NCBI GenBank assembly: GCA_024742285.1
Contig: JANSYR010000006.1
Coordinates: 62,001-126,000, forward strand
Source: a bacterium
GTDB lineage: Bacteria > Myxococcota_A > UBA9160 > UBA4427
Length of the DNA: 64,000 nucleotides
Direction: 5' to 3'
The position numbers and the translations under genes were made by a program. The stretch's first letter is position 1; each line of letters starts with the position of its first letter. Below are positions 2,792-23,931 of this stretch, piece by piece. The notes below the pieces were generated by a model. The model was not told the origin of the DNA, made no database searches, and was given only the letters and a program-made list of their open reading frames with translations.

Positions 2792-4090
2792 TCAGCTCTT
2801 GCGGGAACCGCCAGGAAATGAGAATACCCGCTGTGAGGGAAGCGCAATCGCATCGGTGCTCTTGATTCTTGCAGCGGAACGGCGAAAGCCACTATCGGAA
2901 CTTCGAGCCTCGACAAGGCGCTCCGACATCAGCGCGTCTAGGACTTCCCGGATCATCGCATCCGACGCCGGAGTCTCGTTCGTAACCGACTCAAACAGGG
3001 ACGTGTATGCCACGCCTTCGCTTGTAAGGCGGTTCGGCAATTCGGCCACGAGCTGACCAATGCTGCGCTTCCTAGCCGGAATATCGAAATCGTATCCGAG
3101 CTGAATCTGCCCCACGAGGTCGTCGTCACGAGTCGGGTCGTATCCAAGCATATCGAGCCCTGCAGCCCCGTAGTGCCGGAAATGGTTCGCGAACTCCCAG
3201 TGCAACGCCTTCATCTCCATGTTCGCCCGCTGGCTTTGGCAGAGATGCACCAGCCAATAGGCTCGGTGACTAGTCTCGGAGACATTGAAAAATGGGGTCA
3301 TATACGCCGCCCCCGACCCCTTGCGAAGCGCTCCCGCCAGCTGGTGCTGGATAAGCCAGCGCCATCCATGTTCTTGCGAACGCTCTTCAAGCGCGCCTTC
3401 TAGATCTACTAGGCCCGATAGACCAACCTCATCGAACACACGTTTGTGGCTCTCAAGATTCTTCTCGCTCAGGTACTGCGTCAACGAATCCACGGCGAAC
3501 GTGACCAGAAGCTCAGCGTTCGGCAAGCGACCGAGAATCTTCTGAAGAAGCGGAACAGGGACATCCTTGTAGCCGTATTGGTCCAGCAGAAACAGCGAGC
3601 GACCCGCTCGGCTCGAGCCTTCGGCTCGGGAGATGATACGTTCCGCATGAGATTCGAACGCACCCGCAAGAACGTGGACGTCCTCCCCGACCCGGTCAGC
3701 GAAACGCGACTCGGCGAGTACTTTCTTCAGACACTCGACGTTCCCCTTGTTGATGTCGACGAAGAAAAACTCCGCCTTCACCCTAAGCAGTGTCCGCTGG
3801 CCCTGAGCCATTCGGCGTTCGTTGACGACACGCTCGGCACGCTCGACAGCGTCGAGCATGATCAGCGGAGACCCTGGGTGCAGAGCCTGCTCGTCGTTGT
3901 TCCAGTAGAGGCCGCCGCCAGCGAAACCATCGACAAGCGTTAGGTGAATCGACTCACGCTGCGGAAGCGCACACAAGACCTCGATGTATCGCTCAACGTA
4001 GCGATCGAGAATCGCGTGCTTGGCTCTACTGTGCGCCTCGATAGGAGGCGGTCTGCCACCCTGTTCCCACTGATACGGGCGTCTCGGCAT
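2792..4090 (-). CDS. tcmP: Three-Cys-motif partner protein TcmP
   Basis: 432 aa from the ATG at 4090, 2 nt after the stop of the three-Cys gene. A longer reading from 4276 would overlap that gene and adds no domain. The N-terminal half resembles TcmP proteins: KHAILDRYVERYIEVL, then LTLVDGFAGGGLY (a Rossmann/methyltransferase-like glycine motif), then FFFVDINKGNVECL, and LLDQYGYKDVP, a DPPY-like position. TcmP is defined by co-occurrence with the three-Cys DUF5131 protein, and the biochemical role of the pair is unknown. The sequence suggests a nucleotide- or SAM-binding fold. It is the last gene of a three-gene operon in an island, which fits a mobile accessory or defence function. Family confidence is high; function is unassigned. 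Confidence 0.88.
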   Translation of the reverse strand: MPRRPYQWEQGGRPPPIEAHSRAKHAILDRYVERYIEVLCALPQRESIHLTLVDGFAGGGLYWNNDEQALHPGSPLIMLDAVERAERVVNERRMAQGQRTLLRVKAEFFFVDINKGNVECLKKVLAESRFADRVGEDVHVLAGAFESHAERIISRAEGSSRAGRSLFLLDQYGYKDVPVPLLQKILGRLPNAELLVTFAVDSLTQYLSEKNLESHKRVFDEVGLSGLVDLEGALEERSQEHGWRWLIQHQLAGALRKGSGAAYMTPFFNVSETSHRAYWLVHLCQSQRANMEMKALHWEFANHFRHYGAAGLDMLGYDPTRDDDLVGQIQLGYDFDIPARKRSIGQLVAELPNRLTSEGVAYTSLFESVTNETPASDAMIREVLDALMSERLVEARSSDSGFRRSAARIKSTDAIALPSQRVFSFPGGSRKS

Positions 4091-4092
4091 CT

Positions 4093-4854
4093 CTAGGGCC
4101 CTGCCCTCGCTGGGTCGAATGCCCAGACAGGTAGACCGTCTGCGGCCTTCCCACGGATCTCTCGACCATTGGCCTTCTTGCTTCGGCGCACACCATCGGG
4201 ACCGAACGCGCCCCACTGCTTGAAGAAGAACGGCACCGATTGACGCTCGCATTCGCTGCGGACCGAATCCACCCATTCGGGCTTCATCGGCCGCGCTCTG
4301 GGCCCCGATTCACCCCCGACGATCACCCAGTGAATCCCCGCAAGGTCGAGCTCCCCAAGTTCTTCGAGGAGGGGCTCCACTGACAGGAATCGGCACCGTG
4401 CTGAAACCTCACGAAGATGACCGATTCTGGGGATGCCGTAGCGTTGGTCCTCCACAGAAACCCCAAGCCAGGCGTTCGGCGGCACCTTGCGGCTCCGGAA
4501 ATAGCGCTCCATCCGTCCGGAACGCTTCGTCAGCACCTGAAAAGTATGGTGCGCGCAGTCGGCGATTACGCCGAACACGTCATCAAGAAACGCGTCGGAA
4601 ACGCCCTGGTGAAACAAGTCACTCATCGAATTGACGAAATAGACTGTCGGCTTCCGCCTACGCGTCGGCTCGGAGAGCCTCTCGCGAACGGTATTGAGAC
4701 GAAATCCCTGCTTGTAGGCCGGCGAGCCCATGGCCTTAAGCCGCCCCGCCATCGTCTCCGCGTAGCAGTGCTTGCACCCGGGAGACACCTTGGTGCAGCC
4801 GACTGTCGGATTCCACGTCAGCTCAGTCCACTCAATGCGGCTACGAGTTGACAT
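4093..4854 (-). CDS. Three-Cys-motif protein, phage Gp37/Gp68 (DUF5131) family
   Basis: 253 aa. The opening IEWTELTWNPTVGC, followed by SPGCKHCYAE, carries the family signature: C20, C27 and C30 (C-x6-C-x2-C), as in radical-SAM-like cluster sites. Further conserved blocks are YFVNSMSDLFH, HTFQVLTKR, LGVSVEDQ, CRFLSVEPLL and WVIVGGESGPRARPM, ending with FFFKQWG. These are typical of phage Gp37/Gp68 proteins (DUF5131). Known members occur in phages and mobile islands next to TcmP, as here. Translation is probably coupled to tcmP, since the stop and the next start are 2 nt apart. The upstream neighbour is a HEPN-like gene 23 nt away. A radical-SAM reaction is likely; the substrate is unknown. 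Confidence 0.9.
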   Translation of the reverse strand: MSTRSRIEWTELTWNPTVGCTKVSPGCKHCYAETMAGRLKAMGSPAYKQGFRLNTVRERLSEPTRRRKPTVYFVNSMSDLFHQGVSDAFLDDVFGVIADCAHHTFQVLTKRSGRMERYFRSRKVPPNAWLGVSVEDQRYGIPRIGHLREVSARCRFLSVEPLLEELGELDLAGIHWVIVGGESGPRARPMKPEWVDSVRSECERQSVPFFFKQWGAFGPDGVRRSKKANGREIRGKAADGLPVWAFDPARAGP

Positions 4855-10586: not shown

Positions 10587-12017
10587 TCAGCCCACCCCGG
10601 CCCGGTGCTCGGTCGCGGGCTCGGGTTGCGTCGGCGGGTGGAGCTCCGGAGCCGAGGCATGGGGGAAGTTGCCGTTCCGGTCGGGCACCAGCTCCGGCGG
10701 ATAGCCATCGAGCAGATCCAGGAGCGCGTCGCGCATGTCTTCCGGCGCATCGACCTGCATGACCCGGAGTTGCCCGGCGACGAGGTCCGCCTTCCGTTGC
10801 ATGAGTGCGAACGTCTCCGGGTCCATCCGGTGAGACGCGTCCTCGAGGGTCAAGACGAAGGCATCGGGACGCACGTAGAGCAGGGGCAGCGCCCACTCGC
10901 GGTTGTTCTCGGCGTCGCCCTGGTAGCGCTGGCACAGGCTGCGGCGGGGCGCGTGGAGCGCCGCCGCCCACTCGATCTCGAGGGACTGCCCGAAGGCGAG
11001 GCCCGACAGCCCGTCGTCGAGCAGGCCGAACAATGCCTGGTAGAAGTCGGCAGCGAAGCTGCTGGCGTCCGACGCGTTGACGGGCTCCAACATGCCGATC
11101 GCCGCCGGGACGCCCCGCTCGGAGACGAGGAGGTGCGCGAGGGAGTGTCCGTTCGCCGGGGCCTGGCCGCTCTTGCAGCAGCTCAGCGTGACGAGCCAGA
11201 CGCCATCCAGGCCGGGCATGGAGGCGAGGTCGCTTCCGGTCAGCTGGATGGAGGAGCCACTCGCGCCCGTCGCGATGTCCAACGGGGTCGCGATGTGCAG
11301 CTCCGTCATTCCGGCACTCGTCCTGCCGTGACACGAGAGGTGGAGGATGTTGGCCCTGGCGTCGGCCAACGCACGCTCGAGCTCGGCCAGGTTCGGGGGG
11401 ACCTCGTCCGCCTGGATCCACGCCTCGAGCCCGTCGGCATCGATCTCGCCGCGAATCGTCGCAAGCGTCGCTTCGCTTGCGACGAAGAGCTGCATCTCCA
11501 GCTCGAGGCCGGCGTCGTGGGCTCGTACCGCGGTCTGCTTGAGCGCAAGCCATTCCGACAGACCGGAATCCTCCCGCACGCCCAGCACGGCGACGAGCCG
11601 TAGCGGCAGGCTGAACTCCGCGGTGTTGGCCGAGAGCGGTCGCGTCGAGTCCGCCATCCGGCCGATGGGCGACACCCGCTCAAGGGAAACGAACTTCCCA
11701 GCGTCGCTGCAAAGGGTCTCCCACGAGAGCAGCTCGGAATCGGAGACGCCCGCGATCCGGAAGAAGATCGGGCTGATCTCGCCCGGGGGTGCGGCCAGCG
11801 CGTTCTGGAGCGCCGCCGCGACGGCCTGATCCTGTCGAAGCTGGGCCCAGAGCCGCTGTCCGTGTTGCCGAACGGATTGCGGCACCGACCAGTCCGGGGG
11901 GTCGCAGTCGAGCGGCTGCAGAATCGCCTCGTGCCCGTTGGCCTGACCCTTGTCGAGACGGAAGAGCGCCGCGTCCTGGTACGACGCATGGAGACTGATG
12001 ACCGTCCGGTCGCCCAT
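10587..12017 (-). CDS. CHAT-domain caspase-like protein
   Basis: 476 aa. The C-terminal half is a CHAT domain: ILHLSCHGRTSAG gives H230 and LVTLSCCKSGQAP gives C281, matching the CHAT pattern xHxxCHG ... LSxCxTG. Then comes SLAHLLVSERGVPAAIGML, the usual strand-helix after the cysteine, and LSGLAFGQSLE. The N-terminal 200 residues (an early segment EISPIFFRIAGVSDSELLSWETL) look like the pre-CHAT region. CHAT proteases are activated by partners in conflict systems, for example TPR-CHAT with type III CRISPR effectors or gasdermin modules; none of those partners is present here. The start overlaps the previous stop by 1 nt (TGATG). Both catalytic residues are intact. Confidence 0.85.
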   Translation of the reverse strand: MGDRTVISLHASYQDAALFRLDKGQANGHEAILQPLDCDPPDWSVPQSVRQHGQRLWAQLRQDQAVAAALQNALAAPPGEISPIFFRIAGVSDSELLSWETLCSDAGKFVSLERVSPIGRMADSTRPLSANTAEFSLPLRLVAVLGVREDSGLSEWLALKQTAVRAHDAGLELEMQLFVASEATLATIRGEIDADGLEAWIQADEVPPNLAELERALADARANILHLSCHGRTSAGMTELHIATPLDIATGASGSSIQLTGSDLASMPGLDGVWLVTLSCCKSGQAPANGHSLAHLLVSERGVPAAIGMLEPVNASDASSFAADFYQALFGLLDDGLSGLAFGQSLEIEWAAALHAPRRSLCQRYQGDAENNREWALPLLYVRPDAFVLTLEDASHRMDPETFALMQRKADLVAGQLRVMQVDAPEDMRDALLDLLDGYPPELVPDRNGNFPHASAPELHPPTQPEPATEHRAGVG

Positions 12018-13435
12018 CAGGAACGCTCCCGTCGTGAGAAGTCCGCCACGATGCTCTGGATCTTGCCGAGGGTGTCCGTCAGCTCCTCGACGTCCGAGCT
12101 GGCTCGCGGGAGGCTGCCGCTGCGAATCTGCTCCGTGAGGCGTCCGATCTCCAGCGACTGCTTCTGCATGTAGCGTTCGCTCGCCGAGAGCCAGGTGGGC
12201 ACACTCTCCTCGGTGAGGCGGATGTCCTCGAGGAGGCTCTTGAAGTCGGACGTGAGGATCGCCTGCGCGGTCTGCTCCTCCTCCGTGGTCGTCTGGCCCA
12301 GGAGCTCGGGGTGGCAGTAGAGGAAGAGGGCCGGCGATCGGGGTGGCGGCGACGGGGCTGGGCCCTCGGCGGAGCCGAACAGGAATCGCTCGGCTTCGCG
12401 GAGTGCGAGACAGCTCGGGTCGAGCCGGAGCTCGTGGTGGAGCACCGGGCCCGGTCGCAGCTCCGCGAGCTCGTACGCCAATGCGCGCAGCCCCATCTCC
12501 GAGTGACTCGGATCGGGGGAGGAGAACACCGTCCCCCAGGCGCCGATCCGTTCGCAGAAGCTGTTGAGCTCCGGCGCGCCGACGAAGCGTGCCATGCGGA
12601 GGTCTTCGTTCTGGCGGGGCGACTCGGATAGCGCGAGTGCGCCCTGCCCGCGTGCCGCGTACCCGTGCGCGAGGAAGTGCACGACGTCGATCGAACGTCC
12701 GGAGAGAGCGTCCTGCATCCAGAGGAGCCAGGGATTCACGATCCTGTCGTCGCTGCGGATTGTCAGGTCCCGCTCGGGCGCGCCGTAGTCGCCGGCGCCG
12801 GAGGGCTCGTGCAGGCGGACCGGTCCGTCGGGACCGACGCGGTCCTGGAGACGGCGTTGCAGCTCGTCGAGGAAGACCGGCTCCACGAAGACGTGGACGC
12901 GGACCCGCTCCCGGACGTGCCCGTCGGTCAGGATGTCGACCAGGCTCTCGAGCGTCTCCACGAGGTGGAAGTCCTCCTTGGCGATGGGGCTGCTGCTGCA
13001 GATCGCCACCTCGAGCCTGCCGGGTGCACCGTGGCTCGAGTCGACGAGGAAGTCCGGCAGCCGCAGCAGCGGATGCGGGAGTCGCTCGCGGAGGAGACGC
13101 TCCCAGGGCACCATCGAGAGGTATCCGCAGGGCTTCACCAGGTGGATCCAGACCGGGTCGTCCGCCCCATGGTCGTGCTCCAGCGCGGCCCCGATCGCGT
13201 CGAGGACGGAGTCGGGAAGTTCAAACGGGATGCCCTGGCGGAGTGTGGCTCGCCGCTCGAGCCGCTCGGGCACGCCGATCTCCTCGATCGGGACGCGCTG
13301 CTGCGGCATCAGGGGCTCCGCGTGTCCCTCGCCTCCCCCCTCCAGGTCGAAGAGCACCCAGGTCTCCGATCCCGACAAGTCGAGGGCGATTCGAAGGACG
13401 ACGAGCCCGAATCGCTGCTTCAGGATGATCGCCAT
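12017..13435 (-). CDS. CHAT-like protein lacking the catalytic cysteine
   Basis: 472 aa. The segment GYLSMVPWERLL (about 104-115) is the CHAT pre-domain signature. IDVVHFLAHGYAARGQGALAL places a caspase-type histidine at H257. Where the LSxC strand should follow, the sequence reads WGTVFSSPDPSHSE, with S305 and S306 instead of cysteine. The C-terminal 100 residues are helical and charged, with coiled-coil character. It is probably a pseudo-protease that pairs with or regulates the intact CHAT protein encoded next, whose start overlaps this stop by 1 nt. Serine acting as nucleophile is not excluded but would be unusual for this clan. It lies 8 nt after the MBL gene. Confidence 0.65.
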   Translation of the reverse strand: MAIILKQRFGLVVLRIALDLSGSETWVLFDLEGGGEGHAEPLMPQQRVPIEEIGVPERLERRATLRQGIPFELPDSVLDAIGAALEHDHGADDPVWIHLVKPCGYLSMVPWERLLRERLPHPLLRLPDFLVDSSHGAPGRLEVAICSSSPIAKEDFHLVETLESLVDILTDGHVRERVRVHVFVEPVFLDELQRRLQDRVGPDGPVRLHEPSGAGDYGAPERDLTIRSDDRIVNPWLLWMQDALSGRSIDVVHFLAHGYAARGQGALALSESPRQNEDLRMARFVGAPELNSFCERIGAWGTVFSSPDPSHSEMGLRALAYELAELRPGPVLHHELRLDPSCLALREAERFLFGSAEGPAPSPPPRSPALFLYCHPELLGQTTTEEEQTAQAILTSDFKSLLEDIRLTEESVPTWLSASERYMQKQSLEIGRLTEQIRSGSLPRASSDVEELTDTLGKIQSIVADFSRRERS

Positions 13436-13443
13436 CGGAGCTC

Positions 13444-14547
13444 CTACGCGAGTGTCAACGTCTTGAAGTGATGATTCGAGGGCATGATCTTGAGGTCGTA
13501 GCCGAACTCGTTCTCGGGGAACTCCTGCTGCAGCTTCGTCAGCGTGTTGCGCCGGTTCGTCGCGATGATGTCGATCTCGCGCTCCTGGGCCTTCGCCGCC
13601 TCGACGATCCAGCTCAAGGTCGACAGGTCCGGGTTGTCCGGGTGGCCGTTGGCGGAGATCACGTAGGTATCGGCAGTGACCTTCTTGAAGAAGGTCTTGG
13701 TGACGTTCCGGTCGCTCCCGTGGTGCGGAACCTTCATGACGTCGACGTGGAGCTTTCCGTCGTCGTCGAGGTGGCCGGCATCGCCGAGACCGTCGAGCAG
13801 GTGGTCGCTGCGTCCGTCGCCCGTGAACAGGATCGTCTTGTCGTGAGCCTCGGCGATCATCATGACGCTGCTCAGGTTCGGGACGCTCTGGTCCGCGTTG
13901 GCCATCACCTGGGACTCACCGCTGATGAGGTCATCCTCGTGGACGTCGAGCCATTCCGCCCACTCCGTCTTCAGCGCGTCTAGGTTCGCGCGGGTGGGCC
14001 CGACGATGTGGAGATTGAGGTTCCCGAACTCGAGGGGATTTGGTGCGTCGTCGACGCAGATCAGCCCGTCGGGGAACTGGTCGTTCAGGGGTAGTCCGAG
14101 CAGGACGGCGAGCCGCCGGAAGCGGCTCCCCTGCCCGAGCCCGAGGAAGCCCGCCATCGCCATCGGCATGCTGGCGGTCCCTGCCGCGCCCAGCGCTGCC
14201 GCCATCCGGGCCTGGATGCTGCCGTCCGAATCGATCGCCTCGGTGAACGAGTTGTGCCAGACGTTGTCCACCTCGATGAGGGGCGAATCGCCCTCCGCCT
14301 GGTCCTCCTCGAGCTCGGCGAAGAAGTCGAGCAGTCCCACGATGTGGTCACCGTCGACATGGCTGACGTTGACCACGTCGAACTTGCCGCCCGCGTTGCG
14401 GACGTGGCGGATCTGTCGCCGCAGGTGGTCGCGGTAGACGTCCTCCGGCCCGCCGTCGATGAGGCTGAAGCGCGGGTTCGACTCCGATCCGTACTCGAGG
14501 ATGAAGCAATCGCCGAAATCGGCCTGGATGATGCGCAGCTTGAACAC
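13444..14547 (-). CDS. ComEC/Rec2-like metallo-beta-lactamase-fold hydrolase
   Basis: 367 aa. Metal motifs: SHVDGDH (H63, D65, D67, H68), TILFTGDG near 240, and VPHHGSDRN near 275. The D in place of the second H of HxHxDH is common in ComEC/Rec2-type enzymes, as is LIDGGP near residue 30. Such proteins are nucleases or phosphodiesterases, and stand-alone copies are recurrent in protease-containing conflict operons. There is no signal peptide or membrane segment, unlike ComEC itself. The gene lies between the S8 protease (34 nt away) and the CHAT-like gene (8 nt). Possible roles are a nucleic-acid or cyclic-nucleotide hydrolase acting as sensor, effector or off-switch. Its substrate cannot be read from the sequence. 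Confidence 0.85.
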   Translation of the reverse strand: MFKLRIIQADFGDCFILEYGSESNPRFSLIDGGPEDVYRDHLRRQIRHVRNAGGKFDVVNVSHVDGDHIVGLLDFFAELEEDQAEGDSPLIEVDNVWHNSFTEAIDSDGSIQARMAAALGAAGTASMPMAMAGFLGLGQGSRFRRLAVLLGLPLNDQFPDGLICVDDAPNPLEFGNLNLHIVGPTRANLDALKTEWAEWLDVHEDDLISGESQVMANADQSVPNLSSVMMIAEAHDKTILFTGDGRSDHLLDGLGDAGHLDDDGKLHVDVMKVPHHGSDRNVTKTFFKKVTADTYVISANGHPDNPDLSTLSWIVEAAKAQEREIDIIATNRRNTLTKLQQEFPENEFGYDLKIMPSNHHFKTLTLA

Positions 14548-14581
14548 AGGGGGGTCCTCCTTGGGCGGAACGTCCGTCGGA

Positions 14582-16804
14582 TCAGGCCGGAACGAGCTCG
14601 GAGTCGAGGGCGCCCGTTGCGACCAGCGCGAAGTCCTGCGCGAACTCGCCGAGCAGGTTGGTCGCCGTGACCTGGACGCGGTACGTGCCGGCCGTCGGGT
14701 TCGGGATGCGAACGACCTCGACGTTGTTCTCGGGGTCGGGGATGCCGAGGCTCAGCGGCAGGTCCTGATTGCCGACCCACTTCCGCCCGGTCGCGGCCTC
14801 CTCCACGAACAGGTTCAGGTTGTTCTGCAGCGCGCGTGCGGGTAGGTCGGTCCAGGCGAGACACAGGCGCAGGAACTCGCCGCCGTCGGCGACGTCGATG
14901 TCGAAGCGCATGCGCTGGCCCGGCGTGGCGAAGTGGAGGTTGGTGTCTTCCCAGGGGTCGAGGAAGGCCAGGCGCATCCACGGCTCGGCGTCGTTCGGGA
15001 TGGCGTGCTGCATGTGCAGGCAGCCGAAGCCCTGGTGGAAGTTGGGCGACACGGAGAACTCGGCGGTGGCGCTGCGGCCGCTGAGCCAGCGCGTGCTGTT
15101 GACGAGGGTCGCCTTCACGAGAGCGGCGCTCGGGCTCTCGTGCTCGCGCTGCTTACGGTAGTACTCCCGCACGAGCGCGGCGCATCCGGCCACCAGCGGC
15201 GCGGACATGCTCGTTCCGCCGTTGTATGCATAGCGCCGGTTGCTACCCGGGAAGGAGCCCCAGAAGTTCCGGCTCGGGGCCGTCGAGGACCGGGTCGAGA
15301 CGATGTCCGTCCCCGGGGCCACGAGGTCCGGCTTGATGCGACGATCGTCGCAGGGTCCCCGACTGCTGAATGCCGCGATCTCCTCCGGGTCGCCGGAAAC
15401 GCGGTCGTCGCCCTCCGGCGCGTGGGGGAAGTCAGCGGGCCAGGCGTCGTTGTTGCGCAGCCCCGAGTAGCCCCCGCTCGAGCGGTCGCTGCGGCTGGCG
15501 CCGACCGTGAGCGCATTCTTGCTGGAGGCCGGCGATCCGATCGAGAGCCAGTCCACGAAGCCCGAACCGGTATTCGGGCCGCCGCGATCGACGCCCTCGT
15601 TGCCCGCGGAGATCACCAGCAGCATGTCGCGGTGTTCGTGAACGAACTCGTCGGCCTCGATCGAGTTGAAGGTGTAGCGGGAGGCGGTCGCCGCGCCCCA
15701 GCTGTTGTTGTGGATGCGCGCCCCCGCGTCATAGGGGGGCTGGAACAGGTCGGCGAGGTTCCAGGGCAGGCCGCCCAGCTCGCCATCGGCGTCCATGATC
15801 GACTGCACGTACAGCTTCGCGCCGGGCGCGGTCCCGCGGATCCCACCGTTCGAGGCGCTTCCGTCGCCGGCGACCGAACCGCACACGTGGGTTCCGTGAC
15901 CATCGGGGTCGCTCGCGTCGCCCGTGCGCCCGAGCGCGTCGACCCGCTCGATGCGACTCACGAGGTCGGGGTGCGCGCGGTCGACGCCCGTGTCGGCGAC
16001 GGCCACGAGCTCGCCATCCCCCGTCTGGGTCAGGACCGGCTCACCCCCCGGCTCGGGGTCGATGCCCATCAACGCGCGGGCGCGGTCGTTGTGGAGTGAA
16101 GGCGCGATGAACTCCTCCACGGCCTGGACCTCCTGCCTGGCCCGAATACGCGTCAGGAGCGGCGAGCTCTCGAGGAGATAGATCCGGATCTTGCGCCCGC
16201 GAACGCCGGCCACCGAGACGCCCTCGGAAGCGAGCCAAGACTCCACTGTGTCGGCGTCTTCCGCGCGATGGAGGCGCAGGTCGAGCGTCAGCATGCGGTC
16301 GACGCCGATCGCGGGAGCCTGGGCTCGCGCGGATGCGGCGGCGGGCGCCTGGTCGTTCGGGTCGTAGGGTCGAACCGCCGCCACGAAGCCCAAGCCCCGG
16401 ACGTTCTCCAGCTGCTGCGGCGTGAGATAGGTGCTGTAGAGGCTTCGACTCGGCGCGACGCACTCGAGAAGACGGACGTCGAGGTCTTGCAGCGACTCGC
16501 GTCGGGCGGGGGTGATGGGCCCGGCCAGCTGGACGACGAAGAAGCCGGGCTCCGGCGCGCCCGCGACCTGGGGTCCGGCCGCCGCCGCCGCGGGTTGGGG
16601 AAGACCCTCGACGTCCACGCCCGGATCGGTCCCGCCGTCGAGCACGCCGACGATCAGACCTGCGTCCCGGAGCTGCGACAACTGCGACGCGTCGATCGAC
16701 CCGAGCGCATAGCCCTCCGTGAACTCGGCGTCCTCGAGCAAATCCTGGGCCGATGCGGCCTCGGACTCGTGCATGAAGTGTGCGATGACGCGAACGACCG
16801 CCAT
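14582..16804 (-). CDS. Subtilisin-like S8 serine protease with doubled pro-like region
   Basis: 740 aa from the ATG at 16804, which has GAGGGG 10 nt upstream; the ATG at 16813 directly abuts that site. Catalytic residues: D271 (AVADTGVD), H303 (DPDGHGTHV) and S532 (GGTSMSAP), with oxyanion N402 (VISAGNEG). Residues about 88-150 and 170-235 look like two inhibitor_I9-type pro-segments. The last 120 residues form a beta-sandwich tail like P-domains (LAWTDLPARALQNNLNLF). No signal peptide is present, which is unusual for a subtilase and fits an internal role. It is the first gene of the operon. Within a multi-protease locus it is a natural candidate for initiator or executioner. The enzyme call is firm; the pathway is inference. 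Confidence 0.9.
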   Translation of the reverse strand: MAVVRVIAHFMHESEAASAQDLLEDAEFTEGYALGSIDASQLSQLRDAGLIVGVLDGGTDPGVDVEGLPQPAAAAAGPQVAGAPEPGFFVVQLAGPITPARRESLQDLDVRLLECVAPSRSLYSTYLTPQQLENVRGLGFVAAVRPYDPNDQAPAAASARAQAPAIGVDRMLTLDLRLHRAEDADTVESWLASEGVSVAGVRGRKIRIYLLESSPLLTRIRARQEVQAVEEFIAPSLHNDRARALMGIDPEPGGEPVLTQTGDGELVAVADTGVDRAHPDLVSRIERVDALGRTGDASDPDGHGTHVCGSVAGDGSASNGGIRGTAPGAKLYVQSIMDADGELGGLPWNLADLFQPPYDAGARIHNNSWGAATASRYTFNSIEADEFVHEHRDMLLVISAGNEGVDRGGPNTGSGFVDWLSIGSPASSKNALTVGASRSDRSSGGYSGLRNNDAWPADFPHAPEGDDRVSGDPEEIAAFSSRGPCDDRRIKPDLVAPGTDIVSTRSSTAPSRNFWGSFPGSNRRYAYNGGTSMSAPLVAGCAALVREYYRKQREHESPSAALVKATLVNSTRWLSGRSATAEFSVSPNFHQGFGCLHMQHAIPNDAEPWMRLAFLDPWEDTNLHFATPGQRMRFDIDVADGGEFLRLCLAWTDLPARALQNNLNLFVEEAATGRKWVGNQDLPLSLGIPDPENNVEVVRIPNPTAGTYRVQVTATNLLGEFAQDFALVATGALDSELVPA

Positions 16805-16862
16805 GTTCGCCATCCCCTCACGTCCCGCGGCGCCTGATGCGCGCGGGGATGCAGCCTTATCT

Positions 16863-16891
16863 ATGATACACGGCAGGCGCTTGAGCACTAA
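16863..16891 (-). promoter_or_regulatory. Possible sigma70-type promoter of the seven-gene operon
   Basis: On the minus strand the pair TTAGTG (16891-16886) and TATCAT (16868-16863) is separated by 17 nt and lies about 59 nt upstream of the S8 start. The match is moderate. No other start signal appears in the 110 nt before the gene. Confidence 0.35.
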
Positions 16892-17452: not shown

Positions 17453-18271
17453 CGAACGCCCCCACCGTCGAGTCGGGGTCCGCGTGCGTAAGACTATGGG
17501 CCGCTTCGGCAGGAATCTGGGTAGGAACTCAACCTGTGGGGCAGCCACCTACGACCAGGCCCAGAAGATCCGCATCGCCGCTTCTAGGCGTCGTCACGAC
17601 GCTCGCCCCGATGCGCCGCAACCGAGCCCCAGGAGGCGTCGGCGACGAGGAACCCCCTCTCGCGCGTAGGGGCTCGCCAGATAGGATCGAGAACTTTCAG
17701 GCGCGCCTAGACCCTCAACCGGCTTGGCGGTGGAGTGGTCCAGGGACTACTCGTCGATTGGATAAGCGAGGCCTCAGTCGGGCTATCGGGTAGAAACGAC
17801 GGGGCCTACCCGCTGCCTTCGGCACGCGAGCGGTGAATCCCGAACGGCATCCGGCTGTGCGGCCCGACTAGATCGTGCGGGCGCAGCAAGTCCGGATTAG
17901 CCGTCTACTCTCTGCGTGTCCCGCGGGCTACCGCCTCCGGGCTCCGAACACTCTGTCGCTGAGGTCGCCTCCACCGCGCAGGCCTCGGTCCGAGAAGGCA
18001 CGCACGATATCGATCGTTGTGACCAGCGTGGATCGCGGGCGAGAACATTCTCACGGGCAGTGACGGAGATGTTACCGAGCACCGACGCAGGGGGTCTGCC
18101 TGCGAGGCGGGGAAGGCGGTCCGGTATCGGTCGCCGTCATCCAGGCAGAGTCTTGCTTCATTGAATCTGCTGCATACCCCCTTTCCTGGGGGACGCAGGT
18201 GCGGCAGGTCAGCAGGCTCGGGCGCGTCTGACGTGCCCGAGCCCGACTCTGCCGCCCTGGGTGGACCGGTT

Positions 18272-18853
18272 CTATGAATCCGAGGAGCCACCGGCTCGAT
18301 GAGCAAACACCGATTGCGTCGCGTCCAGCACTAGATCTCGACGGGCAACGAACTGCTCGATGTGGAGAACCATCTCGGCAACAGCGTCCAGCGTTGGCGG
18401 CGAGAGCAAGACCGCAACGCACTCCGGGAATTGCACTCCCCGTCGTTTGGAGCAGCAAAGAATCGCGTCCCAGTTCACCACCGCTGCGCGCATGATCTGC
18501 ATGGCCTTCACCTCGGTCTCGATTCCCCAGCCGTCACAACCAAGGATTCCCGCGCAGACCTCAAGCAGGTAGTCCGCGTTACCGATCTGCTCGGGACCGT
18601 TTTCTTCCCAGTCGTAGCCGGCAAGCGAACAGAGCTGTACCCACGACCACGCAATGAAGCTGAGCGTCTCGCTCGGACGCGAGAACTCCGCCAGATGCGC
18701 GGTGCTACTGAAGTGCGCTGCGAATCGCTCCTCGAACTCGGAATTGCTAGGGAGACGATCCGATGGAGACGGCTGCTTTAGCTCGCCCCAGTATCCACGA
18801 CGCCGCGTAGTGAGGCTTCCGATTCCCGCGGTGTCCGATTCAATTGTCGACAT
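18272..18853 (-). CDS. Unrecognised protein
   Basis: 193 aa if it starts at the ATG at 18853; the frame is open to 19039, but the upstream part has poor composition. I do not recognise it. It is helical with a Trp/Cys-rich middle (SFIAWSWVQLCSLAGYDWEE, then LLEVCAGILGCDGWGIE). It ends in a charged helix and a Gly/Ser tail. No signal peptide or membrane segment is clear. The 12-bp palindrome GCAAGCGCTTGC lies 55 nt upstream of the start, where an operator would sit, and the same palindrome recurs up to and inside the reverse-transcriptase gene. That makes a shared regulator, or a functional link with the reverse transcriptase, possible. Coding status is moderately supported. Confidence 0.5.
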   Translation of the reverse strand: MSTIESDTAGIGSLTTRRRGYWGELKQPSPSDRLPSNSEFEERFAAHFSSTAHLAEFSRPSETLSFIAWSWVQLCSLAGYDWEENGPEQIGNADYLLEVCAGILGCDGWGIETEVKAMQIMRAAVVNWDAILCCSKRRGVQFPECVAVLLSPPTLDAVAEMVLHIEQFVARRDLVLDATQSVFAHRAGGSSDS

Positions 18854-18907: not shown

Positions 18908-18919
18908 GCAAGCGCTTGC
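18908..18919. repeat. Palindrome GCAAGCGCTTGC, copy 1
   Basis: Perfect 12-bp palindrome, within a 19-nt stretch (GATGCAAGCGCTTGCGCAG) shared with copy 2. It resembles a LacI-family operator (TGCAAGCGCTTGCA type) and lies 55 nt upstream of the gene at 18272-18853. Confidence 0.75.
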
Positions 18920-19300
18920 GCAGTCCAGCTGAGTACCGATCGCCGTGTGAGCCCGCAGCTGCCGCTGATTTGCCCGAAGCTCCACGACACCCGGACGACT
19001 CGAACAGTCGTCTGCCGTGTAGTTGTGGGCTCCTGTCATCTCATCCGCCGGCCGACACCTCTGGGACAGGTCCCAGGAAAGTCGCCTCCATGCGGATTCC
19101 CGAACGATGACAGCCTACCGCTACGTGCGGAGCGTTAGCTCCCCTTTTAATCCAGCTACAGGTCAGCGCGCCACACTTTTCTACAGAAATTTGAAGTCGA
19201 CGTCGCTCCCGCCCTCTGGAATCACGTCCGGACACGCCTCGGTAACGAGAGCACTTCGAGCAGAATCCCTCTAGATGACCGCCTAATGAAGGTTCGGGCT

Positions 19301-19356
19301 ATTCGGTTCTGTTTCGTTCTGTCTGGTTCTGTCTGGTTCGGTCCGATTCTAGTCGG
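19301..19356 (+). repeat. Tandem 10-bp repeats (iteron-like)
   Basis: Successive decamers from 19311 read GTTTCGTTCT, GTCTGGTTCT, GTCTGGTTCG and GTCCGATTCT, with partial units on both sides. The 10-bp period is close to one helical turn, as in iteron or protein-array sites. The sequence stands out as T-rich against its surroundings. Confidence 0.7.
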
Positions 19357-19757
19357 ACTACGCAGCTCCTGTGCAGTAGTGCAGTAGAGGCGCGTGGGCA
19401 ACGAGCGTCGAGTCATCTTCGGGCCGTATCGCTGGTTAGCTCCCCTAGATCAAACGAAGGACCACCCTTCAGATTCGCTCCCAACCTCCCGGCGAGTCGG
19501 CAGACGTGTTCTCGAGGGCCTGATTGACCGCGTGGTTGGTTGGACGCTGCAGGAGTCCAGCCGTGCCTGGTTGCAGGGCAACTCCTCGCGATCGAGCGAC
19601 CTCACGAGATCAGCGCCCCAGATCGACCGTGCGCCGATCACGTCGTGTCCGAGGTTCGCGGGGCCGCCCCAGGGCGGGGGGCCACCGCGCTCTCGCGTCC
19701 TCACGAGTTGCAGGAGCGCACCGACACCTAACTGGCTGTGTACCCGGCGCGTTCGAT

Positions 19758-19769
19758 GCAAGCGCTTGC
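19758..19769. repeat. Palindrome GCAAGCGCTTGC, copy 2
   Basis: Perfect 12-bp palindrome in non-coding DNA. It shares 19 nt with copy 1 at 18905, so these two copies may descend from one duplication. Confidence 0.75.
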
Positions 19770-19999
19770 GCAGGTCACGTGTCGCGGACTCCGCTGGATC
19801 GGCCGAACGTCGCCGTAATTCCGTCCCCCCCCCGCGCGGATCAGGCTGCCCTCCCTTGAGGAGTCGACTCACTCTAGGCGGTCTAATCCGCGTCTGAGCC
19901 TTTGGGGCCGGGGAGCCGACAGCGGTCGCCAGCGTCCGATCAGACTCGCGGGCCAAGGTTTCCAGGCCAAGCCAGAGACCCAGCCGCCCGCGAGAATCG

Positions 20000-20011
20000 G
20001 CAAGCGCTTGC
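20000..20011. repeat. Palindrome GCAAGCGCTTGC, copy 3
   Basis: Perfect 12-bp palindrome, extended to GGCAAGCGCTTGCC. Its flanks differ from copies 1 and 2, so the conserved unit is the palindrome itself. Confidence 0.75.
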
Positions 20012-20475
20012 CAATACGAAGAATCCCGACCATCGGCCGGACGGTCCTCCGAGGGCCGCTCGCGAACGGCGATTGGCCGGAAGCCAGCTCCCAACACCGG
20101 CGAGTACCGCTCCGCTGGCTAGGGGGCCGCTCGGTCTGCGCAGCGCCATACCCCGGAGGTCAATCGGATTGGCGCCGACGGCGCGAGTGTTTCGCCTCCT
20201 CGCCCGTTGACCTGCGCACCCGGTCAAGGTCTCCCCTGCCAATCGTCGACACCGATTTAGCTGCTGGGGCGCGCAGGGGGCCGGCGGCAACGGCCACCAC
20301 GCAGATCGGCGACCGGCGCAACTCACTCCCAGGCAGGCGCAGACATCTCCGCGTCGACTGAGTTCTCCAACGCGAGATCACGCCGCCAAAGGCGTCGGGC
20401 GTCGCAGACCTAGCTCCGTGCGGAGTGGCGTCGAGGCGTCAACTCAGGCTCTCCACAGCAACTTTCTCGCGAGGC

Positions 20476-20541
20476 GGCTCCTGGAGCCCTCCCAGCTGTG
20501 AAGTCGTCCGGCGCACGTGCCGATACGGCCCACATATCGGC
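20476..20541 (+). other. Hairpins immediately upstream of the reverse transcriptase
   Basis: Two perfect dyads: GGCTC-CTG-GAGCC (20476-20488), and GCCGATA at 20519-20525 paired with TATCGGC at 20535-20541 across a 9-nt loop. They end 45 nt before the start codon. They could belong to a leader or a template RNA; no conserved retron feature was identified. Confidence 0.4.
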
Positions 20542-20586
20542 GAAGCGGGTCGCAAACCTTAGAAGAATTCCTGACCTGGGAAGAAA

Positions 20587-22239
20587 ATGATGACGGCCGA
20601 CGAACTCAAGCAATCCGAGCGCAAGACTTTCATGGTCGACAACAGCTCACGAAGCATCGTGTTCCGCGCGATCAACCTATTCAAGGAGCTGGCGGAGGTC
20701 GACCTCCAGGCGCACCCGTTGGAGTGGATCTGCATCGAGTACACCTCCGGCCTGCCGAAGTATGCCGAGAAGGCCAGTAAGACCGGCAATCGACGTGCAG
20801 TTCGGCTCGCAGCTTACCCCGATCAATGGGAGACGATTGAGCAAGCGCTTGCACTTGCACAGACGCGAATCGAAACCAACGATCGCTCCCTCGCCCTACG
20901 TCATATCTGCGAGAGCGTCCTCGATCACTACACCCCTCCCGCTTGCGGCGGAGATCTCGGCGGATCCCAACTCGGATCTAGCTCGGGCCCCTCCCCCGCT
21001 GAACACGGCTGTGCCGCAAGCGGAGAGACTGCCGACTCGCCTTCTGTTGAGGCGTGTTCGGCAACGCGCGCCAGCCAGGTAGGGTCGCATGCCGCTCTAG
21101 CCTCCGTGACGGAGTCTGGGTCTGGTTGTGCCCCTATTGAGGGTCTGTCGCGCCCTCCGCACCAGTCCTCCGATGGATCGAACACATCCGACGTGTTCAG
21201 CGGCCCAGGCAGCGATGCCTACCGAGTCGCCGAGGTCGATACGTCCTCGGCGGTGTCGACCCCAATGGCTGGTGCGGATAAGGATCTTCCAGGCGGTACT
21301 CAAAGCCCCTGGCCCGGCGAAATGCGCAAGCGCTTGCGCTCATCGTTGGAGTACTCGGCATTCCGGCAGCTTGGCGCTCACCTTGGAAGCCTTGGCGGGG
21401 TCGCTGTCGCACTTGAGTCGCTAGAGGGATTCGGGCCGCCGATTCGCAGCTACCCGCGGGCGAAGCCTGCGGGTGGCTACCGAACGATCGAAGCACCGAG
21501 AGACGACCTGAAGCTGCTGCAGCGCCTGGCCAGACAGCTTCTGCAGCAGCCCTGGACCCCATCGCCCATCGCATTTGGAGTACACGGCCGACCGTACTGG
21601 CATGGGGCTCGCCGACATCTCTGCTCGCAGTGGGTCGGCACCACCGACATCCACAACTGTCACCCATCAGTCAGCCGAGACTCCGTCTCCCGGCTCCTCG
21701 AATCACTAGAGATCGAATCGGACGTGGTGGACGTTCTGGTGGACGTCTTGGCGCTCCGCGGGCACCTGATCCAGGGCTCTCCAGCGAGCCCGATCTTCCT
21801 CGAGCTGCTGTTTTTCGGACTCGACCGTCGTATCGCCACGTTCGCGGCCGCTCGCGGCCTGGCCGTCAGTCGCGTCGCGGACGACTGGGCAATTAGCGGC
21901 GCCCAACAGTGCGATGTCACGGAGGCCATCGAATTCATCCGACATGGCCTCCAGGCCCTCCAACTCCGCCTCAACGAGCGCAAGACGCGGATCCTCCCGC
22001 GCCGTAGGATGCCGACCGTCTGCGGTCTGCGCGTCGACCAGCACCGATTGATCCTGCCTCGCCAAAGTCGACGCTCCATCGAGCTACGTGTGCGACGAGT
22101 AGCCCGCAGCGGCGGCTCCGATCTCGATTTCGATGCCGCAACCGGGGCAATCCATCACGTCGCCCAGTTCCACCCGGGGTTGGGGCGCCGACTTCGAGAT
22201 CAGCTCGATCGGGCGATGTCGAACTGCGGATCCTGCTGA
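20587..22239 (+). CDS. Retron-like reverse transcriptase with long N-terminal extension
   Basis: 550 aa from the ATG at 20587 (GGGAAG upstream; a second ATG follows directly). The RT domain spans about 285-505: GGYRTIEAP, AFGVHGRPYWHGARRH, motif A TTDIHNCHPSVS (D354), motif B QGSPASP (396-402), catalytic VADD (430-433), LNERKTRI, and TVCGLRVD (476-483), which sits where retron RTs have VTG. The usual Y of YxDD is V430. Residues 1-115 form a helical domain I do not recognise, and about 116-245 is a Ser/Gly/Pro-rich linker. Retron RTs usually begin near the RT domain, so this extension is atypical. Two of the palindromes lie inside this gene. It resembles retron and unknown-group RTs of defence islands; its product and partner are not known. 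Confidence 0.85.
   Translation: MMTADELKQSERKTFMVDNSSRSIVFRAINLFKELAEVDLQAHPLEWICIEYTSGLPKYAEKASKTGNRRAVRLAAYPDQWETIEQALALAQTRIETNDRSLALRHICESVLDHYTPPACGGDLGGSQLGSSSGPSPAEHGCAASGETADSPSVEACSATRASQVGSHAALASVTESGSGCAPIEGLSRPPHQSSDGSNTSDVFSGPGSDAYRVAEVDTSSAVSTPMAGADKDLPGGTQSPWPGEMRKRLRSSLEYSAFRQLGAHLGSLGGVAVALESLEGFGPPIRSYPRAKPAGGYRTIEAPRDDLKLLQRLARQLLQQPWTPSPIAFGVHGRPYWHGARRHLCSQWVGTTDIHNCHPSVSRDSVSRLLESLEIESDVVDVLVDVLALRGHLIQGSPASPIFLELLFFGLDRRIATFAAARGLAVSRVADDWAISGAQQCDVTEAIEFIRHGLQALQLRLNERKTRILPRRRMPTVCGLRVDQHRLILPRQSRRSIELRVRRVARSGGSDLDFDAATGAIHHVAQFHPGLGRRLRDQLDRAMSNCGSC
20841..20852. repeat. Palindrome GCAAGCGCTTGC, copy 4 (inside RT gene)
   Basis: Perfect 12-bp palindrome read as codons for QALA (residues 86-89). 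Its conservation here is not explained by the protein, because copy 5 is read in a different frame. Confidence 0.75.
21326..21337. repeat. Palindrome GCAAGCGCTTGC, copy 5 (inside RT gene)
   Basis: Perfect 12-bp palindrome read as part of RKRLR (residues 247-251), a phase different from copy 4. It lies at the boundary between the linker and the RT domain. Confidence 0.75.
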
Positions 22240-22449: not shown

Positions 22450-23529
22450 ATGCCGCGAGCTTCAACGTCAAGCAGGCCGGGAGTAGTCCGCCGTCGCGGG
22501 GACCGGTGGCAAGTCGATGTAACGATTCGAGGAGACCGCGTTCGTCGATCAGCGGCAAGCCGCCTCGAAGCCGAAGCCCTCTTGGCGGCGATCCTCAGTC
22601 AGCCTGAAGAGGCGGCGATCCAGACCGCCGCTTACGCCGAGACGGAATCACAGAGCGTTCTCGTCCAGACTGCTCTGGATCGGTTCCTCGCGTCGACGCG
22701 ACTCCGGCGTCGCGACCGCACCGTGGCGGCGACAACGAGCGCCGTTCGGCGCCTAGGGCGGCACTTCGCAGGCCTCGCACTGGGTGATCTGTCGAGGTCG
22801 CAAATCGACCAGTTTCTCCAGAGCCGCAAGGGCGAGGGCGTCTCGGACAACACGGTCAACCGAGACCTCGCGTGCCTGCGGGCCGCCCTTACGCTCGCGA
22901 AGGATGACGGGTTCATTGAACGTGTGCCCAAGATCCAGATGCTGCGAACCGTGCGCCCCGTCCCACGAGTGCTGAGCAAGAACGACATCCGGAAGCTCGT
23001 CGGATACGGCGGGGAGTATTCCATGGTCTTCGCCACGGCCGCTCTCGCAGGGCTTCGAGCGGCCGAGATGCGGTGGCTTTCCTGGCAGGACGTCGATCTC
23101 GCGCGCCACCAGATCCACGTGCGGGCGAAAGCAGATTGGCGGCCGAAGTCGCACGCAGAGCGCTCGGTGCCGATTCCGCAGGTTCTCGTGGATCGCCTCC
23201 GCGCCCACGCGGACTCGACAAGGTCGAGCGGTGAAAGCTGGGTGTTTCCCTCTCCGACAACAGGAGGTGTCTGGAGCGAGAGTGGGTTCAGCAAGCGAGC
23301 AACCCGCGAAGCGAGGGCCGCCGGCGTCTGGGAGCCGGGATGCAAACCGCTCCACGATCTACGGCGATCGTGGGCCTCCCACCTGATCGCGGGCGGCGCA
23401 CCAACACACACGGTAGTGGCCCTCGGGGGTTGGTCCAGCATCGCCGTCGTTGAGCGGTTCTACCTTAGTCCAACCTCCGAGGCGATCGATGCAGCGATTG
23501 CCGCGAGCGCATCGATCCTTGCCACCTAG
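22450..23529 (+). CDS. int: Tyrosine recombinase (integrase) of the island
   Basis: 359 aa. A SAM-like core-binding domain covers about 70-165 and the catalytic domain about 175-345. Active-site residues are R203 (AALAGLRAAE), K227 (VRAKADW), H302 and R305 (LHDLRRSWASHL), W328 (LGGWSS) and the nucleophile Y338 (VERFYL). An in-frame stop two codons before the ATG at 22450 fixes that as the earliest start, although no good ribosome site precedes it. The gene points at a partial tRNA-Thr gene 240 nt downstream, the usual arrangement for integrases that insert into the 3' end of a tRNA gene. No excisionase is evident. It is expected to catalyse integration and excision of everything to its left. 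Confidence 0.93.
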   Translation: MPRASTSSRPGVVRRRGDRWQVDVTIRGDRVRRSAASRLEAEALLAAILSQPEEAAIQTAAYAETESQSVLVQTALDRFLASTRLRRRDRTVAATTSAVRRLGRHFAGLALGDLSRSQIDQFLQSRKGEGVSDNTVNRDLACLRAALTLAKDDGFIERVPKIQMLRTVRPVPRVLSKNDIRKLVGYGGEYSMVFATAALAGLRAAEMRWLSWQDVDLARHQIHVRAKADWRPKSHAERSVPIPQVLVDRLRAHADSTRSSGESWVFPSPTTGGVWSESGFSKRATREARAAGVWEPGCKPLHDLRRSWASHLIAGGAPTHTVVALGGWSSIAVVERFYLSPTSEAIDAAIAASASILAT

Positions 23530-23931
23530 AGGGGGTGCGAGGCCATGGCGCCGCGCCGCAGCACATGCGCATCGATCGACTCCCGCCCTCCGTTCATCCC
23601 GTGCCTGGTAGGCATAGTTGAGCTCCGCTCTCCGATTCTGCTGGACTCAGCGGCCTCCGGTGTGAGAAGCTCATTTACCAATCGGTCGCTCTCCGGAACG
23701 GACGTTTCTCCATACGCCGCCACTCGTTGGGTTGGTGTGGCCGGCAACAGACTCGCAACGGAACCCACCCACTCGTAATGAGCAGGTCGTCCGTTCGAGT
23801 CGGATCGTCGGCTCCACTCATTCCCGCAGAATGTTTGGAGAACCAGGGAGGCCTCCGCGCAGGGAAGCCAGGGGCGCACCACCGGTCGGCCTCAAAGGTC
23901 GAACCGAGAGCACGCGCCAGTCTCGGGAGCG
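23530..23931. other. Island border region
   Basis: About 400 bp from the integrase stop to the first chromosomal gene. It contains the tRNA-Thr 3' fragment and nothing else that I can support as a gene. Confidence 0.6.
23770..23816 (+). other. Attachment site: 3' part of tRNA-Thr (anticodon CGU)
   Basis: Reading + strand: anticodon loop CTCGTAA (23772-23778, anticodon CGT), TGAGC half-stem, AGGTC variable region, T-arm GTCCG/TTCGAGT/CGGAT (23789-23805), acceptor half CGTCGGC, then T and CCA at 23814-23816. Upstream, the 5' anticodon half-stem is ACCCA, which does not pair with TGAGC, and no D-arm or matching 5' acceptor (GCCGACG expected) is present. It is thus a truncated tRNA, as left by recombination at a tRNA gene, and an integrase lies beside it. 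The full tRNA should lie at the other end of the island, left of the window. Confidence 0.8.

What the first reader, a model, noticed from the sequence alone, without database searches (positions are those of the whole stretch)
20587..22239. Retron-like RT with VADD core and unknown N-terminal domain
The RT core has retron-like motif B (QGSPASP) and a VTG-like TVCG segment, but the catalytic YxDD is VADD. The RT domain is preceded by about 280 residues: an unrecognised helical domain and a Ser/Gly/Pro linker. Retron RTs are usually close to the bare domain. It may represent an unassigned group with its own effector or RNA-binding fusion.
Basis: partly seen in the sequence, partly recalled or inferred. 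Interest (0 to 1): 0.75.

Follow-up and report, generated by a model that had tools for sequence, protein, structure and literature searches.

The report
Divergent retron-like RT beside an integrase
A bacterial mobile island, inserted in a threonine tRNA gene, carries an unusual relative of the retron reverse transcriptases (enzymes that make DNA from RNA, often for virus defence) right next to its integrase, and similar gene pairs sit beside unrelated integrases in two related bacteria; what the enzyme does is not yet shown.

Summary
In detail: window 20587-22239 encodes a 550-aa protein with an N-terminal helical domain (about aa 1-113), a disordered Ser/Gly/Pro linker (about 115-243) and a confidently folded RT core (about 285-515). 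The RT falls with retron-class RTs by HMM scores, tree and fold, but fits no retron type well. Both retron signature motifs are altered (GARRH for NAxxH, VCG for VTG). The active site also changes in concert: VADD for YADD, and DIHNCH for DxxxFF in motif A. The three catalytic Asp remain.

The finding extends beyond the coordinates. The RT lies at the right end of a ~47-kb island bounded by tRNA-Thr and a 47-nt exact repeat (window 23770-23816), 210 nt before a tyrosine recombinase. Two other genomes of the class carry RT, small protein and recombinase in that order, at tRNA-Arg and tmRNA, with unrelated recombinases; 0 of 127 other RT loci do. The small protein matches the N-terminal domain only weakly. 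A 12-bp palindrome occurs six times in this genome, all in the island, five around the RT.

Best reading: a divergent retron-type accessory module, probably defence-related, on an integrative island. Function inferred, not shown.

The parts
20587..22239 (+). Divergent retron-class reverse transcriptase gene, 550 aa
20587..20925 (+). N-terminal helical domain (aa 1-113), no known family; weak similarity (aa 77-129) to the small protein encoded downstream of the RT in two related elements
20929..21315 (+). Ser/Gly/Pro-rich linker (aa 115-243), pLDDT under 50, codon score slightly negative for codons 121-200
21439..22131 (+). RT core (about aa 285-515); GARRH, motif A TTDIHNCHPS, QGSPASP, VADD, TVCGL
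22450..23529 (+). Tyrosine recombinase (integrase), 359 aa, 210 nt after the RT stop
   Evidence: Phage_integrase E 4.1e-18
23770..23816 (+). Right attachment repeat: exact 47-nt copy of the 3' part of tRNA-Thr(CGT) found intact at contig C6:38477-38552; marks the island's right end
18908..18919 (.). Palindrome GCAAGCGCTTGC, copy 1, about 55 nt upstream of the minus-strand ORF's likely start
19758..19769 (.). Palindrome GCAAGCGCTTGC, copy 2
20000..20011 (.). Palindrome GCAAGCGCTTGC, copy 3
20841..20852 (.). Palindrome GCAAGCGCTTGC, copy 4, inside the RT ORF
21326..21337 (.). Palindrome GCAAGCGCTTGC, copy 5, inside the RT ORF in another frame than copy 4, directly after Met246
18140..18262 (.). 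Highly structured non-coding element (strand unknown): candidate ncRNA or 3' structure of the minus-strand ORF
   Evidence: z -5.7 (+) and -6.5 (-) for 120 nt, most structured segment of about 50 kb
18272..18853 (-). Possible gene, likely start at 18853, no family match; divergent from the RT gene

Best explanation
This is a divergent reverse transcriptase of the retron class, carried as an accessory gene next to the integrase of an integrative genomic island. Most likely it works as a retron-type module: the RT reverse-transcribes an RNA made by the island, and the cDNA or RT complex controls or is controlled by a protein partner. In this copy the partner would be the fused N-terminal helical domain; in two related elements it would be a separate ~125-aa protein encoded directly after the RT, the position of the fused effector in type XI/XII retron RTs. 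The expected benefit is protection of the island or host against other mobile elements. Shown here: RT class, altered motifs with intact catalytic Asp triad, the island and its att sites, gene order shared with two other elements. Inferred: reverse-transcription activity, an RNA template, the role of the partner, defence.
For: Best profile matches are retron RTs: PADLOC RT_X 119, RT_VI 116, III-A 114 bits and NCBIfam St85 110.5 bits, against 33 bits for group II maturases and 17 for Drt2/Drt4. The best solved structure by sequence and by fold is the Ec86 retron RT. In the tree the RT lies on the retron side of a 100/99 split from group II-type RTs. All three catalytic Asp are kept and the core folds with pLDDT mostly above 90. 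L003 and L004 RTs match type XI/XII RT parts best (238 and 149 bits); there a separate small ORF overlaps the RT end by 4 and 16 nt. The islands carry defence-type genes: LmuA/MBL-like, CHAT and subtilase genes in the window and an HmaA helicase beside the L004 module. A strongly structured non-coding element lies upstream.
Against: Both retron signature motifs are altered in all three RTs of this set, although published retron-like RTs often lack them (VTG 47%, NAXXH 59%; PMC4244168). The structured element is 2.3 kb from the RT, far for a retron ncRNA, has no credible Rfam match, and no covarying homologue was found. The partner similarity is weak (E 0.21 in 10,312 ORFs; 19 of 3000 shuffles) and the separate partner did not fold confidently (pLDDT 47). 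VADD plus His at the steric gate could mean a weakened polymerase. The three RTs are not shown to be a clade (AU p 0.41 does not reject it, but long branches are involved).
Confidence: 0.45

Rival explanations
1. Mobility accessory: the RT and its small partner belong functionally to the integrase. The partner would be a recombination accessory protein (as GinD/TnpC-like proteins are in integrase operons) and the RT would act in excision, repair or copying of the element.
For: RT is followed within 1 kb, on the same strand, by a tyrosine recombinase in 3 of 3 elements against 0 of 127 other RT loci; in L005 RT, partner and integrase overlap or abut as in one operon. Integrase operons with a small non-catalytic helper are known (GInts, PMC5385486).
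Against: The three integrases are not close relatives (about 21-29% local identity). Integrases of the window's own family occur without any RT: the left-end copy (54% identical) and hits in four other genomes. Retrons and other defence genes often lie beside integrases without a role in mobility (own knowledge).
Confidence: 0.15
2. The window copy is a decaying or catalytically altered RT that no longer works as a reverse transcriptase; it is kept, if at all, as a binding protein.
For: Contacts of the nucleotide/primer pocket changed together: Tyr of YxDD to Val (132/132 Tyr elsewhere), motif A FF to CH (D+5 is Phe in 131/132), plus NAxxH and VTG changes. Long branch 1.91. Large non-coding stretch upstream and weak coding bias in the linker.
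Against: A 550-codon frame is intact, the catalytic Asp triad, motif B and the conserved Lys are kept, codon score is positive over the RT, and the core is predicted to fold well. Codon bias is as low in the neighbouring integrase, so it more likely reflects foreign origin.
Confidence: 0.22
3. A known retron, simply of a type not separable by these profiles (types X, VI, III-A or an outlier of XI/XII), with its ncRNA and effector not recognised here.
For: High retron HMM scores of several types, all within a few bits; published retrons tolerate motif changes (Ec48, Mx65; PMC6868368).
Against: No type reaches a clear lead; NCBIfam St85 score 110.5 is far below its cut-off 235; no relative above 32% identity over the RT core among about 140 loci; no typical effector next to it.
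Confidence: 0.15

Closest known systems
Retron RTs, e.g. Ec86 (type II-A) and PADLOC types X, VI, III-A
   Same: RT class by HMM, tree and fold; motif B, catalytic Asp, length of RT core
   Different: NAxxH, VTG, YxDD and motif A altered; N-terminal domain and linker; no ncRNA or effector identified; integrase directly downstream
Type XI/XII retrons (RT fused to protease or TIR)
   Same: Best match of the two related elements' RTs; a protein partner sits right behind the RT
   Different: Here the partner is a small helical protein, separate or N-terminal, not a protease or TIR; the window RT itself scores lower with these models (96 and 84 bits)
Myxococcal retron RTs with N-terminal extensions (Mx162, Sa163; PMC6868368)
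   Same: Long N-terminal extension before the RT
   Different: N-terminal sequence does not match the extensions of the RT ORFs gathered here from the same phylum and elsewhere; Mx162 itself was not compared
Integrative genomic islands in tRNA genes
   Same: Intact tRNA-Thr, 47-nt direct repeat, tyrosine integrases
   Different: Two integrases of one family, one at each end, suggesting tandem elements; RT beside the right-hand one
GInts (integrase operon with small helper GinD; PMC5385486)
   Same: Small non-catalytic protein encoded with integrase
   Different: One integrase, not three; an RT in the operon; tRNA/tmRNA targets

Membership tests
Retron | RT belongs to the retron RT clade | tested here: met
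   HMM scores, 100/99 split from group II-type RTs, Foldseek top hits Ec86 and other retrons
Retron | NAxxH motif in region X | tested here: not met
   GARRH; Asn in 129 of 132 relatives. Not absolute: two validated retrons lack the Asn
Retron | VTG motif in region Y | tested here: not met
   VCG; Thr in 130 of 132 relatives. Published: VTG in 47% of retron-like RTs
Retron | Cognate msr-msd ncRNA next to the RT | tested here: inconclusive
   No credible Rfam match; structured element 2.3 kb upstream; regions next to the RT not unusually structured
Retron | Effector gene or domain | tested here: inconclusive
   N-terminal domain of no known family; weak match to separate partner
Retron | msDNA product | not testable with these tools
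   needs small-DNA isolation
Group II intron maturase | Profile score over the curated cut-off | tested here: not met
   TIGR04416 32.6 bits against cut-off 300
DRT (Drt2, Drt4) | Profile score over the curated cut-off | tested here: not met
   16.8 bits against 390 and 450
Diversity-generating retroelement | Template and variable repeats with an RT of the DGR class | not tested
   TR/VR repeats were not searched for; DGR RT is only a distant fold match (rank 21)
tRNA-integrated genomic island | Direct repeat of the tRNA 3' end at both ends and an integrase inside | tested here: met
tRNA-integrated genomic island | Excision and transfer | not testable with these tools
   an attempt to find the empty site in same-genus genomes was inconclusive

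The most novel reading that the evidence does not exclude
A new RT-based module of integrative islands in which a retron-derived RT is coupled, through a small helical partner (here fused to it), to island-specific DNA sites (GCAANCGNTTGC palindromes) and to the integrase operon, so that reverse transcription takes part in the island's own regulation, maintenance or mobility rather than in a classical retron defence.
Probability: 0.12. Interest if true: 0.8.

Novelty: new variant of a known kind. Interest (0 to 1): 0.5.

Why it matters
Retron RTs keep a nearly invariant active site; this one changes the Tyr of YxDD and the steric-gate pair together while keeping the catalytic Asp, which would show how far a retron RT can be remodelled, or what it becomes when it stops polymerising. 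The repeated order RT, small partner, integrase in islands with unrelated integrases, and a palindrome found nowhere else in the genome, make a functional link between an RT and an integrative element directly testable.

Tried and rejected
Close relatives of the whole protein: none in 84,980 genomes or viral contigs by peptide patterns, and none over the full length in plasmids by tblastn. Partner and HTH in viral contigs: none. Partner fold: AlphaFold2 model too poor for a fold search. Type XI retron in G082 (L011): RT fused to a protease, no integrase beside it among the ORFs listed; set aside as a different, known kind. Retron ncRNA next to the RT: flanking 150-nt stretches fold no better than shuffles; Rfam negative. 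One strongly folded stretch before the L004 RT (z -2.8; -2.4 with 180 nt) noted but not matched in L005. Structured element elsewhere: not repeated in held loci or plasmids. Third att copy inside the island: no match within 6 mismatches of a 24-nt core. Empty site in same-genus genomes: contigs end or synteny is lost. Clade of the three RTs: not rejected, not shown; the window RT moves when L004 is left out. The first claim that the N-terminal domain equals the partner (E 0.002) was weakened by a stricter test.

Full report
Observation. The ORF at window 20587-22239 (+) is real and 550 aa long. Pfam RVT_1 covers aa 293-470. AlphaFold2 (alignment of 34 sequences) shows three zones: N-terminal helices (4-36, 56-66, 79-96, 100-113, medium confidence for the last pair), a disordered linker 115-243, and an RT core with pLDDT mostly above 90. 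Frame 0 has the best or a positive codon score over the N-terminal and RT zones but not over codons 121-200.

Class. PADLOC retron models lead (RT_X 119 bits, RT_VI 116, III-A 114, II-A 113). NCBIfam St85 gives 110.5 bits, under its cut-off of 235; group II maturase 32.6; Drt2 and Drt4 16.8. The Ec86 retron RT is the nearest solved chain by sequence and by fold. In a maximum-likelihood tree of 52 RT cores the window RT is on the retron side of a 100/99 split from group II-type RTs. Its place inside that group is not settled: it joins L004 (97/87) with long branches, and moves next to two viral-contig RTs when L004 is removed. Highest identity to any RT core in the set is 32%.

Active site. Against 132 relatives: Asn of NAxxH 129/132, here Gly; Phe at motif A D+5 131/132, here His; D+4 Phe or Tyr in all, here Cys; Tyr of YxDD 132/132, here Val; Thr of VTG 130/132, here Cys. 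The three Asp, motif B QGxPxSP and the later Lys are kept. The two related RTs also lack the Asn and the Thr (A and L in both), with YGDD in L003 and FLDD in L004, but keep motif A FF. The relatives were found with a query from this set, so the frequencies are not those of all retrons: a survey found VTG in 47% and NAXXH in 59% of retron-like RTs (PMC4244168), and two validated retrons lack the Asn (PMC6868368). In a structure of the G2L4 RT the Tyr of YxDD contacts the primer base and the motif A Phe pair packs near the incoming nucleotide's sugar (PMC12337344), so Val and Cys-His here would remodel that pocket. Whether this lowers activity or changes substrate choice is not known.

Island. 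The 47 nt at window 23770-23816 are identical to the 3' part of an intact tRNA-Thr(CGT) at contig C6:38477-38552. The segment between, about 47.3 kb, includes window 1-23816. A tyrosine recombinase lies between the RT and the right repeat (22450-23529), and a second one, 54% identical, follows the tRNA at the left end, which suggests tandem elements. A same-genus genome has a related, interrupted integrase next to a tRNA-Thr(CGT). Cargo includes an LmuA/MBL-like protein, a CHAT protein and a subtilase.

Related elements. Of 91 genomes of the class only two others carry RTs close to this one: G077 (L005) and G084 (L004). Both have RT, then a ~125-aa ORF overlapping the RT end by 4 or 16 nt, then a tyrosine recombinase, then tmRNA or tRNA-Arg. 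Both also share a divergent HTH gene, 48% identical, found in no other genome of the class. Co-directional integrase within 1 kb downstream of the RT: these three loci, and 0 of the other 127 RT loci with enough flank. The three come from one class and the window's own case prompted the test, so this is a strong pattern but not an independent statistic. The small proteins of L003 and L004 are homologous (0 of 3000 shuffles reach the score). The window N-terminal domain matches them weakly: it is the best non-self ORF of 10,312 for their joint profile, but with E 0.21, and 19 of 3000 shuffles reach its score with L004. As a single pre-named candidate this is suggestive; as an open search it would be noise. 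The helix patterns of the two AlphaFold2 models agree roughly, but the partner model is poor.

DNA sites. GCAAGCGCTTGC occurs six times in the 6.55-Mb genome, all in this island: once inside the left integrase gene and five times in window 18908-21337. Two copies inside the RT ORF are in different frames, so the constraint is on DNA, not protein. Chance for all six to fall in 47 kb is about 1e-13, or 6e-10 after allowing for 4096 possible palindromes. L004 has an exact copy 96 nt after its HTH gene, one of two in its genome, and L005 has GCAAACGTTTGC at the like place. The core AANCGNTT resembles LacI-family operators (own knowledge). No binding protein is identified; the RT and, if the weak match holds, its partner are the only gene families common to all three elements besides recombinases that are not close relatives.

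RNA. Window 18140-18262 is the most structured 120-nt segment in about 50 kb of the contig (z -5.7, -6.5 and -7.2 in three tests; background minimum -3.3 in 160 windows, next segment -5.0). It has a 9-bp closing stem and two hairpins, as a retron RNA might, but it also starts about 10 nt after the stop of a possible minus-strand gene, where a 3' structure would lie. It is 2.3 kb from the RT and has no credible family match. It is a candidate, not an assigned ncRNA.

Judgement. The class assignment is firm, retron membership is not: two signature motifs are not met and the RNA is unproven, so it is reported as a retron-class RT, not as a retron. The most likely function is a retron-type accessory, probably defensive, module of an integrative island (0.45). 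Altered or lost catalysis (0.22), a known retron type not separated here (0.15) and a mobility role (0.15) remain open.

Noticed in passing
window 18908-21337 and contig C6:39011: Palindrome GCAAGCGCTTGC: six copies in the 6.55-Mb genome, all in the island, five within 2.43 kb around the RT gene; similar sites beside the HTH genes of L004 (13741) and L005 (1056).
   Followed up: partly
window 18140-18262: Most structured 120-nt segment of about 50 kb; function and strand unknown.
   Followed up: partly
window 10590-16888: Minus-strand cluster: CHAT protein (10590-12017), unknown 472-aa protein (12020-13435), LmuA/MBL-like protein (13447-14547), S8 subtilase (14585-16888); looks like a protease-type defence cassette.
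   Followed up: partly
window 2795-4854: GMT-wHTH protein (2795-4276) overlapping a DUF5131 protein (4096-4854); a possible two-gene cassette in the island.
   Followed up: no
contig C6:38679-39761 and window 22450-23529: Two integrases of one family (54% identical) at opposite ends of one tRNA-Thr island, suggesting tandem integration.
   Followed up: partly
L004 14003-17551: HmaA-type helicase (1610 bits in PADLOC) next to the RT-partner-integrase module of G084.
   Followed up: no
L005 about 820-1010: Small XRE-like HTH reading frame, by eye, next to two TGCAA-type palindromes (1055-1068 and 1081-1094).
   Followed up: no
L011 6202-7887: Type XI retron RT-protease fusion in another genome of the class.
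   Followed up: no
contig C6:57360-57480 (L006): Second strongly folded segment (z -5.0) within the island, inside or near another integrase gene fragment.
   Followed up: no
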